From Taibaiella sp. (GTDB lineage Bacteria; Bacteroidota; Bacteroidia; Chitinophagales; Chitinophagaceae), in NCBI GenBank assembly GCA_021740995.1, contig JAIOYR010000001.1, forward strand, positions 81,756-145,755: a DNA stretch of 64,000 bases. Reading direction: 5' to 3'. The notes beneath the pieces are model-generated. The model was not told the origin of the DNA and made no database searches. It saw only the letters and a program-made list of their open reading frames with translations. Shown piece by piece: positions 8,044 through 19,583 of this stretch; the stretch's first letter is position 1; every line of letters begins with the position of its first letter. The position numbers were made by a program, and so were the translations under genes.

Positions 8044-8778
8044 ATGAGCAGTCAAAATCAAAAAAAGAAAATTGGGCTTAATTCCGTAATTTCTTTCGGT
8101 GCCAGCGTGGTAATCCTGGGTCTGATGTTTAAAATTCTTCACTGGAAAGGTGGTGAAATCATGATCGGCGTTGGTCTCGCCACAGAAGCATTGCTTTTCG
8201 CAATTCTTGGTTGGGCTGCAAGAGTGTCTCCGGAAGAAGAGGCTGCTGAGGCAGGTTCCGGTACTAATTTAAGTGAATTATTGTCAAGTGCTGTTACTCC
8301 TAAAATAGTAGAAGGTCTGACAAATGGTTTCAAGCAGTTTACACAAACTGTTCAGTCTGTTAATCAGATTGCAGGTTCTGCTAATTCAGCTGGTAACTTT
8401 ATCAAAGAAATAGAAACTGCTACAGGTGATGTGAAGAAATTCCGCGACAATATGACTTCTGTTTCCGGTGGTTTCGATGCATTCAACAAATCATTGCAGG
8501 CAGTAAGCCAGATGTCTGGTATATCTGTTACAATGATGAAAGAATTTGAAAGTGCTGGTCAGGGCATGAAGTCTTTCACCAAAAGCATTGGTGACATGAA
8601 CGCAAATTTCGACCAGTTCAACAAAACTCTTAGTGCTATCAATCAGATGACAGCTGCTTCTCAGGGTATGATGAAAGAATTTGAATCTGCTACTAACAGT
8701 ATGAAAGCGTACAACAAAGGTATTACTGATCTTGCGCGTATTTACCAAGCTCAGGTTGATGCTTTTAAGAAAGGCTAA
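8044..8778 (+). CDS. gldL: GldL inner-membrane motor component of T9SS
   Basis: 244 aa. Two membrane helices lie at residues 12-32 and 38-58 ('FGASVVILGLMFKILHWKG', 'MIGVGLATEALLFAILGWA'), the standard GldL hairpin. GldL pairs with GldM to form the proton-driven motor that powers T9SS export and gliding. After residue 95 comes a helical tail made of three imperfect repeats (about 96-143, 144-188, 189-233) sharing 'F.FN..L..I.QM' and 'MMKEFESA' elements; this is an internal duplication. The gene begins 80 nt after gldK and is followed 95 nt later by gldM. Confidence 0.95.
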   Translation: MSSQNQKKKIGLNSVISFGASVVILGLMFKILHWKGGEIMIGVGLATEALLFAILGWAARVSPEEEAAEAGSGTNLSELLSSAVTPKIVEGLTNGFKQFTQTVQSVNQIAGSANSAGNFIKEIETATGDVKKFRDNMTSVSGGFDAFNKSLQAVSQMSGISVTMMKEFESAGQGMKSFTKSIGDMNANFDQFNKTLSAINQMTAASQGMMKEFESATNSMKAYNKGITDLARIYQAQVDAFKKG

Positions 8779-8873
8779 TCTTCTGAATTTTATAGATAGA
8801 TTTATAGCATTATTATTATTTAACATTATATTTTCGGAAGACCCATTCAGAAAATTTAAAAATATATAAACGC

Positions 8874-10403
8874 ATGGCAGGTTTAAAAGAAACACCACGG
8901 CAGAAGATGATGGGTATATTATACCTGGTACTGTTGGGCATTGCTGCTACTACAGTTACTGATCATGTTCTTGATGCCTTCAGGAATCTGACAACGAGTC
9001 TTAAAACATCTTCTGAGAATGTTAAAGCTTCTGTCGACAATACAATGTCCGCTTTCGAAGCTTCAAAACTGAAGAATGAACCAGAGCGCGCTCGTCCGGC
9101 CTGGGAAAAGGCAACAAAGGTAAAAGAAGAAATAGCTAAACTAGATGCATACATTGTTTTAATCAAAGACAGCCTTATAAAGCTGGGAGGTGGTATCGAT
9201 GAAACAGGCGATATAGCTAGTCGTGAAGATGTTGATATCTCTCCTCGTATGATGATGCGTAAAGACAAATGGGCGTCAAAACTGAAGGCAAAGATTGAAG
9301 CTACACGAACTACAATTTTATCTCAGCTACCGGCTAAAGATCAAAACTTAAAAGTGGCATTAAGTGCACAGGACCCTCCAAGACGTGGTGGATTGCTTAC
9401 CAGCTGGGAAGAAACAAACTTTGGTGAAGGTATTCCGCTTACAGCTGCAATTACTGCGCTTACAAAGATTCAGGCAGATATGAGAAACACTGAATCAGAT
9501 GTTATCAGAAAGATTCTGGGTGAAGTTGACAAGGCTGTTATCAACCTTGACCGTTTTGACGCGGTAGCTGTTGCTCCTACTTCTTATATTCTTACCGGTC
9601 AGCAATATTCTGCAAGCGTATTCCTTACTGCATCAGATTCTAAGGCGAATCCTGAGGTGAGTGTAGGAGGTCAGAATTTGAAAATTGTTGATGGTAAAGG
9701 GATGTATACTGTTACTGCGTCACGTGAGGGTGAGTTCAAGTGGGTAGGTACAGTAAGAGTAAAACAAGCTGATGGTACTATGAAGGAGTATAAAACACAA
9801 GAGCAGGTTTATACGGTTGCAAGACCATCTGCTGTTGTTTCTCCTGACAAGATGAATGTTTTTTACATAGGCGTGCCAAATCCAGTATCAGTATCTGCAC
9901 CTGGTTTCTCTAAAGAAAAAATTAAGGTGTCTATGAGCAGCGGCGAAATATCTGGTTCAGGTGGTGCATATGTTGTTAAGGTTTCCCAGCCAGGTAAAGT
10001 TACAATTACAGTTACAGGTACACTTGATGGTGGTAAGTCGACAGTTCTGGGTACTACAGAATTCCGTATCAAGCGCATACCTCCTCCACGTGTTAAGTTC
10101 AGTGGAAAAGCTGGTGGTTCGATTTCTGCAGGTGAGGCTAAAGCTCAAAACAGGATTTTCGCTGTACTGGAAGACTTCGATTTTGAGGCATCTTTCACGA
10201 TTCAGCACTTCAAATTATACATCGTTAAGCCTCGTGCTGATGCGATGGTGTTTGAAAATACTACCAATGCTTTGACTCCTGCTATGAGTGCTGCAATGCA
10301 GGGTGTTGTATCTGGTTCACGCATCATATTCGACGATGTGTTTGCAACTGGTCCTGACGGTGTAAAACGTCCGCTTGACCCGATTACTTTTAATATTAAA
10401 TAA
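8874..10403 (+). CDS. gldM: GldM periplasm-spanning T9SS motor component
   Basis: 509 aa, the usual GldM length. It opens with 'MAGLKETPRQKMMGILYLV', the conserved cytoplasmic start and single membrane helix, then a helical domain (about 40-220) and a string of periplasmic beta domains ending in 'ALTPAMSAAMQGVVSGSRI' and 'IFDDVFATGPDG'. GldM dimers cross the periplasm from GldL to the GldKN ring and carry the motor's energy. The gene lies 27 nt upstream of gldN. The short secreted proteins at 44.5-45.4 kb resemble its last domain. Confidence 0.95.
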   Translation: MAGLKETPRQKMMGILYLVLLGIAATTVTDHVLDAFRNLTTSLKTSSENVKASVDNTMSAFEASKLKNEPERARPAWEKATKVKEEIAKLDAYIVLIKDSLIKLGGGIDETGDIASREDVDISPRMMMRKDKWASKLKAKIEATRTTILSQLPAKDQNLKVALSAQDPPRRGGLLTSWEETNFGEGIPLTAAITALTKIQADMRNTESDVIRKILGEVDKAVINLDRFDAVAVAPTSYILTGQQYSASVFLTASDSKANPEVSVGGQNLKIVDGKGMYTVTASREGEFKWVGTVRVKQADGTMKEYKTQEQVYTVARPSAVVSPDKMNVFYIGVPNPVSVSAPGFSKEKIKVSMSSGEISGSGGAYVVKVSQPGKVTITVTGTLDGGKSTVLGTTEFRIKRIPPPRVKFSGKAGGSISAGEAKAQNRIFAVLEDFDFEASFTIQHFKLYIVKPRADAMVFENTTNALTPAMSAAMQGVVSGSRIIFDDVFATGPDGVKRPLDPITFNIK

Positions 10404-10430
10404 GATTTTGTAAAATTATATTGCGTATTT

Positions 10431-11456
10431 ATGAAAAAGAATTTCCTAGTTTGTATCGCTGTTGTTCTTTCTTTGGGAGCTACTACATATATCAATGCCC
10501 AGACTACTCCAAAAAAGAAGAAGAAGAAGAAAGTTGTAGAGAACAAGGTCAATACAGATAGTCTTGCTGCTGCTCGTGTAGCTGATAGCCTCGCAGCTGT
10601 TGCTGCTGCTGCCGCTGCTGCACCTCCGCCGGTTGAAGAAAATCCATTTGCGGATCTTGTGTCTACCGATACCGGTTTTCAGGCAGATTTTGCTTTGGAT
10701 ACTACTCGTCCGGTTGATGGGTATTACAAGCAAAAAAATCTTCTTGGCGCAAAGCCGTTCGCTTTCCCAAAGGAGAACAAGAATAATATCAAATTCTACA
10801 AACGTATTTGGCGCGAAATCAATCTTACAGATTCTGTAAATAAGATTTTTGCAATGCCTGGTGAGACGCTTATATCGTTGATGATGGATGCAATTAAGTA
10901 TAAGAAGTTGATTGCCTATTCTGATGAAACTTTCAAGAAGCAGCTTACTTATGAAAAAGTAATGAAAGCTTTTTCTGACAGTGCATTGGTTCCAATCCTT
11001 GACTCAATAAATGGTGACGTTCTTGGATATCGTTCGGTTTTCAACGACTTCAATCCGGATTCTGTAACTAAATTTGAAATCAAGGAAGACATTTTCTTTG
11101 ACAAAGTTAGAGGTCGTGTGATTACTCAGACAATCGGTATTTCTCCGGTTATCAAGCTGAAGTCAAGTGCTGGTGATTACATCGGTGATTTGCATCCTTT
11201 CTGGTTGTATTACCCACAGTGCAGAAACCTGTTTGCTGCAAGAGAAGTGATCGATCCCCAGCGTGATATCTATAACGAGAGCTATGATGACATGTTTGTT
11301 CAGCGTAGGTTCAGATCTCGTATCGTGAAAGAATCAAATCCTGCCGATCTTCGTATCAGGGACAAATATCCTAACGATGAAGAAAAGCAGAAAAGAGAGT
11401 CTGACAGGATAGAGCGTGAGATTCAGAGTTACAAAAAGAATCTTTGGAAATATTAA
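10431..11456 (+). CDS. gldN: GldN/PorN T9SS ring component
   Basis: 341 aa with a signal peptide ('SLGATTYINAQ'), a Lys7 run and an Ala/Pro-rich linker ('AAAAAAAPPPVEENPFADL') before the folded domain. The core shows typical GldN features: 'FYKRIWREINLTDSVNKIF', 'IGISPVIKLKSSAGDYIGD', 'PFWLYYPQCRNLFA', 'SYDDMFVQRRFRSRIVKES'. GldN binds GldK to form the large periplasmic ring of T9SS. Spacing to gldM is 27 nt and to the following barrel gene about 30 nt, consistent with one transcript. Confidence 0.94.
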   Translation: MKKNFLVCIAVVLSLGATTYINAQTTPKKKKKKKVVENKVNTDSLAAARVADSLAAVAAAAAAAPPPVEENPFADLVSTDTGFQADFALDTTRPVDGYYKQKNLLGAKPFAFPKENKNNIKFYKRIWREINLTDSVNKIFAMPGETLISLMMDAIKYKKLIAYSDETFKKQLTYEKVMKAFSDSALVPILDSINGDVLGYRSVFNDFNPDSVTKFEIKEDIFFDKVRGRVITQTIGISPVIKLKSSAGDYIGDLHPFWLYYPQCRNLFAAREVIDPQRDIYNESYDDMFVQRRFRSRIVKESNPADLRIRDKYPNDEEKQKRESDRIEREIQSYKKNLWKY

Positions 11457-11486
11457 TTTTTTGTAGTACTATTATAATCCGTGAGT

Positions 11487-12257
11487 ATGAAAACTAAGTT
11501 TATAGCATTATTATCTATTGGTCTTGTTACCTGTTCTGCAGCTTTTGCACAGGTGAGAACTGATATTAGTGTGCGTGAAAGAAATAATAGTGCATATGAT
11601 GTTGGTGAGCAAGGCTATAACGCACACAACTTTAGTGTTGGGTTTGGCTTGGGTTCCAGCAAGTTGTATGGTGATTGGTCTTATTCCAATCCTCAGCCGG
11701 TATATATTGGTTATTTCGAGAAGAATATTACGCCTACAATCAGTTATGGATGGACGGTTTCTGTTGGTGACTTATCTACTAGAGATTCTTACACTAAGCT
11801 TCGTAGTTTTAATCACTTTACCTCTGTAGATCAGCATATCACCGTAGAACTTGGTACTTTGTTCTATGCTTTCGACAAGGATTATTATGATAATTTACTG
11901 CTTCGTATTATTGGTGGTGTATATGGTGGTACTGGTATTGGTATAATCAATAGTGATATAAAGCGTATTGCAAATTCCAGCTTCGATGTTCCGGGTGCAG
12001 TAGCCACTGAGAATCCATCAATTCTAACAAATTCCACCGCTTTGTATATCCCAATCAATGCTGGTTTTAATTTGCATGTTCCGAAATTCTGGATATTCAA
12101 AGGATGCGTTTTCAACGCCAACTTCCAGTATTCAAGCACAATGTCTGACTACATAGATGGATACAAGCCACCTTTCAAAGCTAACAAACGTAACGACGTG
12201 TATACAGTAGCTTCAATAGGATTCAGGTTCTTCATCCTTCATCCTTCCGAGTATTAA
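11487..12257 (+). CDS. Outer-membrane beta-barrel protein, fifth gene of the gld operon
   Basis: 256 aa from the ATG at 11487 (the track uses a GTG two codons upstream). A clear signal peptide ends at 'CSAAFAQ'. The mature part is alternating amphipathic strands with aromatic girdles ('FSVGFGLGSSKLYGDWSY', 'YTVASIGFRFFILHPSEY'), i.e. a small outer-membrane beta-barrel. I cannot assign it to a named T9SS protein; it is not convincingly PorT, PorP/SprF or an OmpA barrel. It starts 30 nt after gldN and a strong terminator follows its stop, so it is transcribed with gldKLMN and may be an outer-membrane partner of the machine. That role is inference. Confidence 0.65.
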   Translation: MKTKFIALLSIGLVTCSAAFAQVRTDISVRERNNSAYDVGEQGYNAHNFSVGFGLGSSKLYGDWSYSNPQPVYIGYFEKNITPTISYGWTVSVGDLSTRDSYTKLRSFNHFTSVDQHITVELGTLFYAFDKDYYDNLLLRIIGGVYGGTGIGIINSDIKRIANSSFDVPGAVATENPSILTNSTALYIPINAGFNLHVPKFWIFKGCVFNANFQYSSTMSDYIDGYKPPFKANKRNDVYTVASIGFRFFILHPSEY

Positions 12258-14897: not shown

Positions 14898-15530
14898 TTA
14901 ACTCAATTCGGCAAGAAACACCTTATCTATGGCTACTATCCAATTTTCAAAGAGTGCCTGCTCAATGGCGCACATATCGGCGGCCAGTTGCTCCCACTGC
15001 GGGTGAAAGACTTCGAGCATCTTTTGCATTTCTTCGAGGTGTCCTTCTTCTTCTGCTATTATAGATTTTACATTCACCTTAGAGGCATACTTGCTTAGTG
15101 CCTCCTGATAGATACCATAGAGCATATCTGCACGTACCTCTATGGCATATGTTACCAGCAGGTAGGCGCCATGTTTCATTTCACGCCCTTCCAGGTGCAA
15201 CTTATCTTTTATGTAACGGCAGGCACTTACATCCAATTGGTGCAGATAGTGGTAGCTCTCTATAGGTGCCAGCAGGTAGGGGTAAGAGTAGTCGGGGCAG
15301 GAATTGGGTGCCAGCTTTTCTATTTGTTTCTTCAAGTAGTAAGCGTGGCGGGCTTCTTCTGCAGCATGCTTCAGCACTATGATATTGGTATATACCGGAT
15401 GCTCAAACTTCGATATTTTGCGTGCGCCCGTGTTCTCCATCATAGACAGGCTATTGAGCCATTTGGCATGCATGTTATTGTTGGGTACTATTATGTCTAC
15501 TATTTTTTTTAGTTGTTCTTCCTGTGTCAT
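14898..15530 (-). CDS. Ferritin-like diiron protein at the end of the biotin operon
   Basis: 210 aa from the ATG at 15530; the track start at 15587 would overlap bioA and is less likely. The sequence is all helix and shows the six-ligand set of a ferritin-like diiron centre: Glu32, Glu59-x-x-His62 ('EEARH'), Glu131 ('YAIEVRAD') and Glu161-x-x-His164 ('EEEGH'). No signal peptide, so cytoplasmic. It starts 17 nt after the bioA stop in the same direction, so it belongs to the bioBFDA transcript. I do not recognise a named family. Possible roles are an oxidase or oxygenase in biotin precursor supply, or iron/sulfur care of BioB; none is shown by the sequence. Confidence 0.7.
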   Translation of the reverse strand: MTQEEQLKKIVDIIVPNNNMHAKWLNSLSMMENTGARKISKFEHPVYTNIIVLKHAAEEARHAYYLKKQIEKLAPNSCPDYSYPYLLAPIESYHYLHQLDVSACRYIKDKLHLEGREMKHGAYLLVTYAIEVRADMLYGIYQEALSKYASKVNVKSIIAEEEGHLEEMQKMLEVFHPQWEQLAADMCAIEQALFENWIVAIDKVFLAELS

Positions 15531-15547: not shown

Positions 15548-16828
15548 TTAGTTTGTTTTTAATTGCAACAGTAATTCTTCTATACATTGGTATATATACT
15601 GCAACTCTGCATCAGTAATGCAGTAAGGCGGTATGATGTATATAATATTGCCCAGTGGTCGCATCACTATCCCCTTGGCTATGAAGAAGCGGTATAGCTG
15701 GTCGCGCATGCCATTATGGTAGGATGGGTTGTCTGTTTTCAGCTCTATTGCCAGTATAGTGCCGGTTTGCCTTACGGCGGCTATTTGCCCATGGTTACTG
15801 ATGCTGGCTGCAAAGGCTGCGTGTGTCTGTGCTATCCGCTTGCGGCTGTCTTCGCAATCTGGTTGCAGCAGCAGGTCCATACTGGCGAGTGCGGCTGCGC
15901 AGATGGTGGGGTTGGCAGTAAATGAATGTCCATGATATAACATGCGGGTGCGGTCTTCATCATAGAATGCATCGAAAATATCCTGTGTACATGCCGTTAC
16001 ACCCAGTGGCATAGAACCACCTGTAAGCCCCTTTGACAGGCAAACGATATCGGGTGGGGTACTAATGTGATTGCAGGCAAACAGTGGCCCTGTGCGGCCA
16101 AAACCGGTCATTACCTCATCGGCTATTATCAGCACATTGTGTTTCCTGCATAGCCCGAAGAATTGCTCCAGCACGGCCGGGCTATACATCTGCATGCCGG
16201 CAGAGCCCTGCACCAACGGTTCTACTATAAAGGCTGCTATGTTGCCACCCTGTAGCAACTGTTCCAGCGCGCCTATGCTTGCAGCTTCGTTTTCTGCAGA
16301 AGGGAAGGGGATAAATGATACATCAAAAAGCATATCGGCAAAGGCATCGGTAAAAATGCTTCTGCCGCTTACCGCCATTGCACCAAAGGTGTCGCCATGA
16401 TAGGCGTTTTGCAGGGCTACTATTTTTCGGGATGTTCTTCCTTTATTGCTATTGTATTGTATCGCCATTTTTATGGCTGCCTCTACTGCAGTAGAGCCAT
16501 TGTCTGAGTAGAAGATTTTCTCCATTCCCGGTGGCAGTATCTCCAGCAACCGCTCTGCCAGCCGCACAGCAGGCTCGTGAGTGAACCCTGCAAATATACA
16601 ATGCTCCAGTTGCAGCAGTTGCTCACTCACCTTTTGCGCTATATGCGGATGCGAGTGTCCATGCAGATTCACCCACCAGGACGATATGGCATCCAGGTAT
16701 TTGTTGCCATCTTCATCTATCAGGTAAGCGCCCTCGCCCTGAACAATGGCTATGGCCTCGGGCCACACCTTCATAGGGGTATAGGGATGCCATATTACCT
16801 GCCGGTCGCGCTCTTTAATAGTTGCCAT
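15548..16828 (-). CDS. bioA: Adenosylmethionine-8-amino-7-oxononanoate transaminase
   Basis: 426 aa, the usual BioA length. A class III PLP aminotransferase with 'IWHPYTPMK' and 'SSWWVNLHGHSHPHIA' (typical BioA), 'DNGSTAVEAAIKMA', 'NAYHGDTFGAMAVSG', 'LIIADEVMTGFGRTG' (Asp contacting the PLP ring N) and 'CLSKGLTGGSMPLGVTA' (Schiff-base Lys). It converts KAPA to DAPA using S-adenosylmethionine as amino donor. Its start overlaps the bioD stop by 14 nt, indicating translational coupling. Confidence 0.95.
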   Translation of the reverse strand: MATIKERDRQVIWHPYTPMKVWPEAIAIVQGEGAYLIDEDGNKYLDAISSWWVNLHGHSHPHIAQKVSEQLLQLEHCIFAGFTHEPAVRLAERLLEILPPGMEKIFYSDNGSTAVEAAIKMAIQYNSNKGRTSRKIVALQNAYHGDTFGAMAVSGRSIFTDAFADMLFDVSFIPFPSAENEAASIGALEQLLQGGNIAAFIVEPLVQGSAGMQMYSPAVLEQFFGLCRKHNVLIIADEVMTGFGRTGPLFACNHISTPPDIVCLSKGLTGGSMPLGVTACTQDIFDAFYDEDRTRMLYHGHSFTANPTICAAALASMDLLLQPDCEDSRKRIAQTHAAFAASISNHGQIAAVRQTGTILAIELKTDNPSYHNGMRDQLYRFFIAKGIVMRPLGNIIYIIPPYCITDAELQYIYQCIEELLLQLKTN

Positions 16829-17465
16829 AAGAAAGGTGTTGTAACAGTGAGTTTTTTATATCCGCTGCACAGGCTGCAATAGATGGGTTGTCCAGAGTGT
16901 CGAAATGAGGTATGCGGGCTATAATCGGCGCGTTGCCATATGCCTCTATAAAAGACTCAGAAGCAGGGTTCTCAGCTGCATTCATCACTATGCCCAGCAG
17001 TTTTATACCTCTGGCTTTCAGCACTTCTATTGTCAATAAAGTATGGTTGATGCTGCCCAGATAATTTTGCGAAACGAGTATTGCCGGCAGTTGGTAGTGT
17101 GTTATAAAATCGGCCATGGTAGCAGCGGCAGCAATGGGCGACAAAAGACCACCTGCTGTTTCTACTATTAGTGTGTTGTCAGTTTGCGGCCAGTTGAATT
17201 TTGTAAAGTCTATTTCCACACCCTCTATTACTGCGGCAGCATGTGGGCTCATGGGGTGCGACAGCACTACTGCCTCGTCATGCACTCTGTGTATGCCATT
17301 GGTAAGCAATTGTCGCAGCAGGGTACTATCCTGCTCTTCTATGCCTGCCTGCACCGGCTTCCAGTAGTGGGCACCCATAGCCTCGGCTACTACAGCCGAT
17401 ACTATTGTTTTGCCGATACCGGTGTGTATCCCTGCTATTGCTATTGCGTTTTTCTTTCCCTGCAT
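16815..17465 (-). CDS. bioD: Dethiobiotin synthetase
   Basis: 216 aa. The N-terminal P-loop 'IAGIHTGIGKTIVSAVVAEA' and 'YWKPVQAGIEEQDS' (carbamate/DAPA site Lys) are diagnostic, with 'VETAGGLLSPIA' as the second substrate motif. It closes the ureido ring of dethiobiotin from DAPA, CO2 and ATP. Overlaps bioF by 25 nt and bioA by 14 nt. Confidence 0.93.
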   Translation of the reverse strand: MQGKKNAIAIAGIHTGIGKTIVSAVVAEAMGAHYWKPVQAGIEEQDSTLLRQLLTNGIHRVHDEAVVLSHPMSPHAAAVIEGVEIDFTKFNWPQTDNTLIVETAGGLLSPIAAAATMADFITHYQLPAILVSQNYLGSINHTLLTIEVLKARGIKLLGIVMNAAENPASESFIEAYGNAPIIARIPHFDTLDNPSIAACAADIKNSLLQHLSYGNY

Positions 17466-18589
17466 AATACATCAAATATAGTGTCTACCTGCTCTTTAGC
17501 ATTAAAGGTATGCAGGCATATCCTTAGTCTTTCCATACCCTGTGCTACAGTAGGGTGCAGTATGGCGTTTACCTGCATGCCCGCTTGTTGCAATTGTGTC
17601 GCCAGCGTTTTGCTTCGTGCATTATCGCCCACTACCAGTGCCTGTATGGGGCTGGTGCTTTCTATCCAGCCGCTAATGCCGGTGTCTGCTATTCGATGCC
17701 TGAAGTAGGCTATCAGTTGGTGCAGTGGTGCATGGCTAAAGTCTGGTGCTGATAAATATTGGTAAGCACACTGCACTGCATATAACGAATGGTCTGGCAA
17801 TGCAGTAGTGTAGATAAAAGTACGTGCGTAGTTTACAAGAAAGTCTTTCAGCAGAGTACTGCCCACCACTGCTGCTCCATGGCATCCCAGTGCCTTGCCA
17901 AAGGTGTGTACCCGGGCAAACACCCTTTGCTGCAAGCCCAGCATACATACCAGCCCCTCACCACGAGGTCCCATAACCCCTGTGGCATGTGCTTCATCAA
18001 TTATCAGTTGGGCATGGTATGTTTCGCATAGCTGCACTATCGCATTGAGTGGGGCCATATCTCCATCCATAGAATATACCGACTCTACCACCACCATTAC
18101 AGGGCCGAGTTCTGCGTACTTTTTTAGCTTTACTTCCAGGTCTTCGGTATTGTTGTGTGCAAACTTATATTTACGTGGACTCATACTAAGCCTCACTCCG
18201 TCTATAATGCTTGCATGGCAAAGCTCGTCGTAAAGTATAGTAGTGTGCCGGTCGGCCAGGGCGGATAGCAGCCCCACATTAGCATCGTAGCCCGAATTAA
18301 ACAGCAATGCAGCTTCTGCCTTATGAAACGTTGCTATTTTCTGCTCCAGTGTTGCCGCTAAGGGCGTGTTGCCCGACAGTAAACGTGAGCCGGTAGATCC
18401 TGTGCGCAAAGCAACTATATGTGCTGCATCTTGCAGTATTCTTTTTGCAAGTACACCGGTTGTAGCCAGCCCCAGATAGTCGTTTGAATAGAAATCTACT
18501 GCTGCCCTCTGTGTGGTCAATGATCTCAGATTACCTGATACCGACCGCTCATCGAGCTTGCCGCTCATGTATTGCTCAAGAAGGTTCAT
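17441..18589 (-). CDS. bioF: 8-amino-7-oxononanoate synthase
   Basis: 382 aa alpha-oxoamine synthase. Motifs: '[12 protein letters not shown]', '[12 protein letters not shown]', '[16 protein letters not shown]', '[15 protein letters not shown]', '[15 protein letters not shown]' (Asp/His at PLP) and '[17 protein letters not shown]' (Schiff-base Lys). It condenses a pimeloyl thioester with L-alanine to form KAPA. No BioC, BioH, BioG, BioW or BioI gene that would make the pimeloyl unit is in the window. Overlaps bioB by 14 nt. Confidence 0.93.
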
Positions 18590-19583
18590 ACTGCATAGCT
18601 TTCACTTTGGCATTTGGGCGGCCATCGGCAAATGCTGCTTTAGGTTTTAATCCCAGTATACGGAACATTTCCATGTCCGCATTTTGTTCCGGGTTGGGAG
18701 TAGTCAGTAGTTTATCTCCGGCAAATATCGAATTGGCGCCAGCTAAAAAGCACATACCCTGCTCTGCTACAGACAATTCCAGCCGCCCTGCAGAGAGGCG
18801 CACAGCCGATGCCGGCATTACTATGCGGGCCGTAGCTATCATGCGTACCAGCTCGTCAAACGGTACTCTTGAGTTATCGCCAAGTGGTGTGCCGTCTACA
18901 GGTACCAATACATTGATGGGAACTGATTCGGGATGTTGCGGCAGGTTGGCCAGAGTAAGGAGCATACCTATGCGGTCTTCGTTCTTCTCGCCCAGCCCTA
19001 TGATGCCGCCACTGCACACGGTGATGCCCGCCTTGCGCACATTAGACAGGGTATTGAGCCTGTCGCCATAAGTGCGGGTGGTAATTACTTCATTATAGTG
19101 TTCTTCTGATGTGTCTATGTTGTGGTTATAGGCGTACAGCCCGGCCTCTGCCAGCCGCTCTGCCTGGTCTGGAGTGAGCATACCCAGCGTGCAGCATACT
19201 TCCATGTCCAGTTTGTTTACTTCTTTCACCATGTCTATTACCCGGTCAAAGTCGCGGTTGTTGCGTACCTCGCGCCAGGCCGCACCCATACAAAAGCGGG
19301 AAGATCCCTCTGCTTTAGCTTTCTGAGCAGCGCTTACTACTTCATCTACCTTCATCAGTGCCTGCACTTTTACATCGGTATTATAGCGGGCTGCCTGCGG
19401 GCAATAGGCACAATCTTCTGTGCATCCTCCGGTTTTTATAGAAAGCAAACTGCTTATCTGCACCTCACCAAAAATATGGTTGCTCCGATGAACATCTGCT
19501 GCATCCAGAACCAATTGTAACAACGGACGTTCAAATATCGCTCTGATCTCTTCTTCTGTCCAGTTATGACGAATATCACTCAT
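18576..19583 (-). CDS. bioB: Biotin synthase (radical SAM)
   Basis: 335 aa. The radical-SAM cluster motif is '[16 protein letters not shown]' (CxxxCxxC). The second [2Fe-2S] site is supported by 'CCTLGMLT' and 'SGGIIGLGE' and by the C-terminal Arg/Leu region '[11 protein letters not shown]'. It inserts sulfur into dethiobiotin. First gene of bioB-F-D-A-ferritin-like, all overlapping or closely spaced. I looked for a BirA-type palindrome upstream (19584-19765) and saw none. Confidence 0.95.

What the first reader, a model, noticed from the sequence alone, without database searches (positions are those of the whole stretch)
14898..15530. Diiron ferritin-like protein as fifth gene of the biotin operon
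The protein has a complete E...ExxH...E...ExxH ligand set (E32, E59, H62, E131, E161, H164) and follows bioA by 17 nt in an operon whose other genes overlap. The operon has no BioC/BioH/BioG/BioW/BioI gene for pimeloyl supply, and I know of no ferritin-like protein with an accepted role in biotin synthesis. A diiron oxidase/oxygenase that forms a pimeloyl precursor, or an iron or sulfur helper for BioB, are testable ideas; the first is analogous to P450 BioI but is inference only.
Basis: partly seen in the sequence, partly recalled or inferred. Interest (0 to 1): 0.65.

Follow-up and report, generated by a model that had tools for sequence, protein, structure and literature searches.

The report
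BioE diiron enzyme of biotin synthesis

Summary
Window 14898-15530 (-) encodes a 210-aa protein with E32, E59, H62, E131, E161 and H164, 17 nt after bioA in a bioB-F-D-A operon. The proposed "diiron oxygenase that forms a pimeloyl precursor" is right but not new. A 2025 paper (PMC12915131, building on a PNAS 2025 report) describes BioE, a ferritin-like diiron oxygenase that cleaves long-chain acyl-ACP or acyl-CoA to pimeloyl thioester. Its six ligands in Elizabethkingia (E26, E53, H56, E125, E155, H158) and Chlamydia psittaci (E41, E68, H71, E140, E170, H173) match the window protein at constant offsets (+6, -9). Nine of eleven mutationally tested CpBioE substrate-pocket residues are identical at that offset. 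Homologues sit in bio operons across Chitinophagales and Sphingobacteriaceae. All 36 BioE+ genomes among 101 relatives carry bioB. BioE and BioG never co-occur in 393 Bacteroidota genomes. The host genome shows no BioG, BioW, P450 or over-threshold BioC. The remaining novelty is modest: this genus seems to keep bioE without a BioL repressor, previously highlighted only for intracellular Chlamydia, and bioE is often unlinked from the bio operon in sister species. Function here is inferred by orthology, not assayed.

The parts
14898..15530 (-). bioE: ferritin-like diiron oxygenase, 210 aa; ligands E32, E59, H62, E131, E161, H164
   Evidence: literature match
15548..16828 (-). bioA (DAPA aminotransferase)
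16815..17465 (-). bioD (dethiobiotin synthetase)
   Evidence: ORF; homologues in bio operons
17441..18589 (-). bioF (KAPA/AON synthase, consumer of the pimeloyl thioester)
   Evidence: ORF; homologues in bio operons
18576..19583 (-). bioB (biotin synthase), first gene of the operon
   Evidence: TIGR00433 hit over cut-off at G000:C124:100403-101320

Best explanation
The gene is bioE. Its product binds two iron atoms through four Glu and two His on a helical bundle, takes a long-chain acyl-ACP (perhaps acyl-CoA) into a hydrophobic channel, and with O2 and electrons oxidatively cleaves the chain between C7 and C8. This gives a pimeloyl thioester that BioF, BioA, BioD and BioB, made from the same operon, turn into biotin. 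It replaces BioC/BioH. Shown here: ORF, ligands, pocket residues, operon context, co-occurrence with bioB, lack of other recognisable pimeloyl routes. Inferred from characterised orthologues: iron binding, the cleavage chemistry, the substrate and the electron supply.
For: Ligand positions are a constant +6 from EmBioE and -9 from CpBioE, i.e. identical spacing 27/3/69/30/3. At the same offset, 9 of 11 mutationally essential CpBioE pocket residues are identical (W24, L28, I39, L96, V126, I130, L137, Y138, Y141), one is conservative (M31 for L) and one differs (N196 for L). The four EmBioE inhibitor-contact residues L22, Y117, I124 and L131 are all identical (L28, Y123, I130, L137). The AlphaFold model (pLDDT 89) puts the ligands on or at the caps of helices. 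Homologues 54-64% identical lie in bio operons of other genera, with divergent MocR-bioE-F-D-B-A in several genomes and MocR-bioE-bioB in Chitinophaga. All 36 BioE+ relatives have bioB (63/101 background, P=1.6e-10) and all 15 BioE+ phylum genomes have bioB (182/393, P=7e-6); zero overlap with BioG. Own genome: no BioG, BioW or P450, and no BioC over cut-off. The paper itself lists Chitinophagaceae among BioE families.
Against: No assay exists for this protein or genus. EmBioE and CpBioE sequences were not in hand, so identity to them was not measured; the match rests on published residue numbers. One pocket residue and several CoA/ACP-interface residues differ (M30, V52, Y93 and H94 against F24, K46, R87 and Q88 in Em), so substrate preference may differ. 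The genome lacks an evident BioL. The species set is related, so the co-occurrence P values overstate independence.
Confidence: 0.95

Rival explanations
1. An iron or sulfur delivery or repair helper for BioB: a ferritin-like protein that stores or supplies iron for the Fe-S clusters of biotin synthase.
For: Ferritin-like ligand set, strict co-occurrence with bioB.
Against: The BioE-specific hydrophobic pocket is conserved residue by residue. 101 of 182 bioB-positive Bacteroidota have neither BioE nor BioG, so BioB does not need it. Published orthologues rescue bioC/bioH mutants of E. coli.
Confidence: 0.02
2. A diverged BioE paralogue that cleaves or hydroxylates acyl chains for some other product, with operon membership incidental.
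For: bioE has no other bio gene within the held flank in 36 of the 80 best loci.
Against: Single copy per genome, all pocket residues but one nearly invariant in 81 homologues, always together with bioB, and genus members in linked and unlinked positions are alike in sequence.
Confidence: 0.03

Closest known systems
BioE of Elizabethkingia meningoseptica (EmBioE; PMC12915131 and PNAS 2025, doi 10.1073/pnas.2501226122)
   Same: Same six ligands at identical spacing, same inhibitor-contact pocket residues, bio-operon context
   Different: Operon order is bioB-F-D-A-E rather than bioE-F-D and bioB-A; no adjacent or recognisable BioL; several CoA-interface residues differ
BioE of Chlamydia psittaci (CpBioE; PMC12915131)
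   Same: Same ligands, 9 of 11 essential pocket residues identical, BioL absent
   Different: Lineage is Chitinophagales rather than an obligate intracellular parasite; interface residues differ from CpBioE as well
BioI (cytochrome P450 of Bacillus subtilis)
   Different: Heme P450, unrelated fold; no P450 in this genome
Cyanobacterial aldehyde-deformylating oxygenase and other ferritin-like diiron oxygenases
   Same: Ferritin-like E / ExxH / E / ExxH ligand pattern (comparison made in PMC12915131)
   Different: Different substrate and product; no significant sequence match to any solved structure

Membership tests
BioE | Six diiron ligands E, ExxH, E, ExxH with the spacing of EmBioE and CpBioE | tested here: met
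   Constant offset +6 and -9 at all six positions; invariant in 81 homologues
BioE | Hydrophobic acyl-chain pocket residues essential in CpBioE | tested here: met
   9 of 11 identical, 1 conservative, 1 different; the differing position (196) is variable among relatives
BioE | Gene in or co-occurring with the bioF/A/D/B genes | tested here: met
BioE | Replaces the BioC-BioH/BioG pathway | tested here: inconclusive
   No BioG, BioW or P450; no BioC over cut-off. The BioC model is over its cut-off in only one of 14 controls and BioH is a generic hydrolase, so absence is not proven
BioE | Cognate MocR repressor BioL (usual partner, not defining: Chlamydia BioE lacks it) | tested here: not met
   The closest MocR of the genome is 38% identical to a bioE-adjacent BioL but is the orthologue of a different MocR in G050; the other is about 22%
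BioE | Two Fe per monomer, O2- and reductant-dependent conversion of C14-C18 acyl-ACP to pimeloyl-ACP | not testable with these tools
   Needs purified protein
BioE | At least 40% identity over 85% of EmBioE (the paper's search threshold) | not tested
   EmBioE sequence not in hand; unnamed class-level genomes with an Elizabethkingia-like gene order carry homologues 53-57% identical
Rubrerythrin (PF02915) | Pfam gathering score | tested here: not met
   18.3 bits against a cut-off of 22.8

The most novel reading that the evidence does not exclude
A lineage not known to be intracellular (Flavipsychrobacter/Taibaiella-type Chitinophagales) runs the BioE route without a BioL repressor and with bioE often moved away from the bio operon. 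Its BioE may therefore be intrinsically mild (acyl-ACP-restricted, like CpBioE) or controlled some other way, which would test the published claim that unregulated BioE of the Elizabethkingia type is toxic.
Probability: 0.5. Interest if true: 0.35.

Novelty: new member of a known kind. Interest (0 to 1): 0.22.

Why it matters
It gives this organism a complete biotin pathway from fatty acids, and it independently confirms by operon context, residue spacing and co-occurrence that the 2025 BioE family extends through Chitinophagales. Neither the Pfam nor the NCBIfam library searched here has a model that names it, so such genes are probably still annotated as unknown. The BioL-free clade is a natural contrast for the published regulation story.

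Tried and rejected
Pfam, NCBIfam and PDB sequence searches gave nothing above thresholds. Foldseek against PDB gave no hit at E<=0.001; the only convincing global match was 3dde, a heme-oxygenase-like DUF (TM 0.66, probability 1.00, E 0.23), while the ligand set is ferritin-like, so fold class was not used as evidence. I first took the MocR gene on G000:C6 as a candidate BioL because it matches bioE-adjacent MocRs at 36-38% and has R49 and K339; two searches showed it is closer (47%) to a different, non-bio MocR of G050, so I rejected it. Plasmid search: no match. The founding PNAS paper is not held.

Full report
What is there. The minus-strand ORF 14898-15530 encodes 210 aa and follows bioA (15548-16828) by 17 nt. 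bioD, bioF and bioB lie upstream with small overlaps, so the order of transcription is bioB-F-D-A-x. The window lies in a Bacteroidota draft genome of 3.9 Mb in 151 contigs, 96.9% complete. The nearest named relatives are Flavipsychrobacter and Taibaiella.

Is it a real, conserved gene? Yes. 36 of 101 related genomes have a homologue, one copy each. 526 stretches of the species-representative collection encode a relative, of which the best 80 were kept. Pairwise dN is about 0.13, with dS near saturation (ratio about 0.05) for three relatives. All six ligands are invariant in 81 sequences.

What it is. A full-text search returned PMC12915131 (Adv Sci, December 2025), which describes BioE of Elizabethkingia meningoseptica and Chlamydia psittaci and cites the founding report (PNAS 2025, doi 10.1073/pnas.2501226122, not held here). 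BioE is a ferritin-like diiron oxygenase that converts C14-C18 acyl-ACP, and in EmBioE acyl-CoA, to the pimeloyl thioester. It bypasses BioC-BioH in E. coli, needs O2 and a reductant, and holds about two iron atoms per CpBioE monomer. The authors list Chitinophagaceae among the families that carry it. The published ligand numbers of both enzymes map on the window protein with one constant offset each (+6 and -9), so the spacing 27/3/69/30/3 is identical in all three. Using the same offset, nine of the eleven CpBioE pocket residues whose alanine change abolished function are identical here, and all four EmBioE inhibitor-contact residues are identical. The residue that differs (CpBioE L205, here N196) is variable among relatives. 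I judge membership of the BioE family as established at sequence level; activity is inferred.

Context. bioE follows bioA in Taibaiella, Mucilaginibacter and other Sphingobacteriaceae. It lies next to bioB beside a divergent MocR gene in Chitinophaga, and heads bioE-F-D-B-A with a divergent MocR in several unnamed class-level genomes and in G116. 44 of the 80 best loci have another bio gene within about 7 kb; in many sister species of this genus bioE stands alone, partly because contigs are short. Among 101 relatives all 36 BioE+ genomes have bioB, against 63 of 101 overall (P=1.6e-10); among 393 Bacteroidota all 15 BioE+ have bioB (P=7e-6). BioG is present in 66 genomes, all bioB+, and never together with BioE (Fisher P=0.001 among bioB+ genomes). 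These P values ignore phylogeny. The host genome has no BioG, BioW or P450 match and no BioC above the curated cut-off; a weak or unusual BioC/BioH pair cannot be excluded.

Regulation. The published partner of BioE is the MocR repressor BioL. The window genome has two MocR-type genes. The closer one (G000:C6:82140-83621) is 38% identical to the bioE-adjacent MocR of G050 but 47% identical to a second, unlinked MocR of that genome, so it is not the BioL orthologue; the other BioE+ genomes of this genus have only MocR proteins of about 23% identity to BioL, or none at E<=1e-30. BioE therefore seems to work without BioL in this genus. The paper reports BioL in most BioE species and highlights its absence in Chlamydia. 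How the operon is controlled here is unknown.

Verdict. This is a new member of a known family, with a small regulatory twist.

Noticed in passing
G000:C6:82140-83621 (L162:6138-7622): MocR-type regulator with conserved R49 and K339, beside genes that look like CoA-transferase subunits; resembles BioL at 38% but is orthologous to a different MocR of G050.
   Followed up: yes
L041 (G029:C40:124000-142000): A 99%-complete member of the same genus keeps bioB-F-D but has no BioE match and no bioA in that stretch; another (G024) lacks bioB and BioE. Source of the pimeloyl group in G029 is unknown.
   Followed up: partly
393 Bacteroidota genomes: 101 of 182 bioB-positive genomes have neither BioE nor BioG, so the pimeloyl source of much of the phylum was not identified by these two markers.
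   Followed up: no
L018, L022, L025, L028: Matches in four sister genomes include one in-frame stop, at the last few residues, i.e. at the natural C-terminus rather than disrupting the gene.
   Followed up: partly
window 8044-12257: These genes look like the gliding-motility/type IX secretion genes gldL, gldM, gldN and a further secreted protein, judged by eye from the translations.
   Followed up: no
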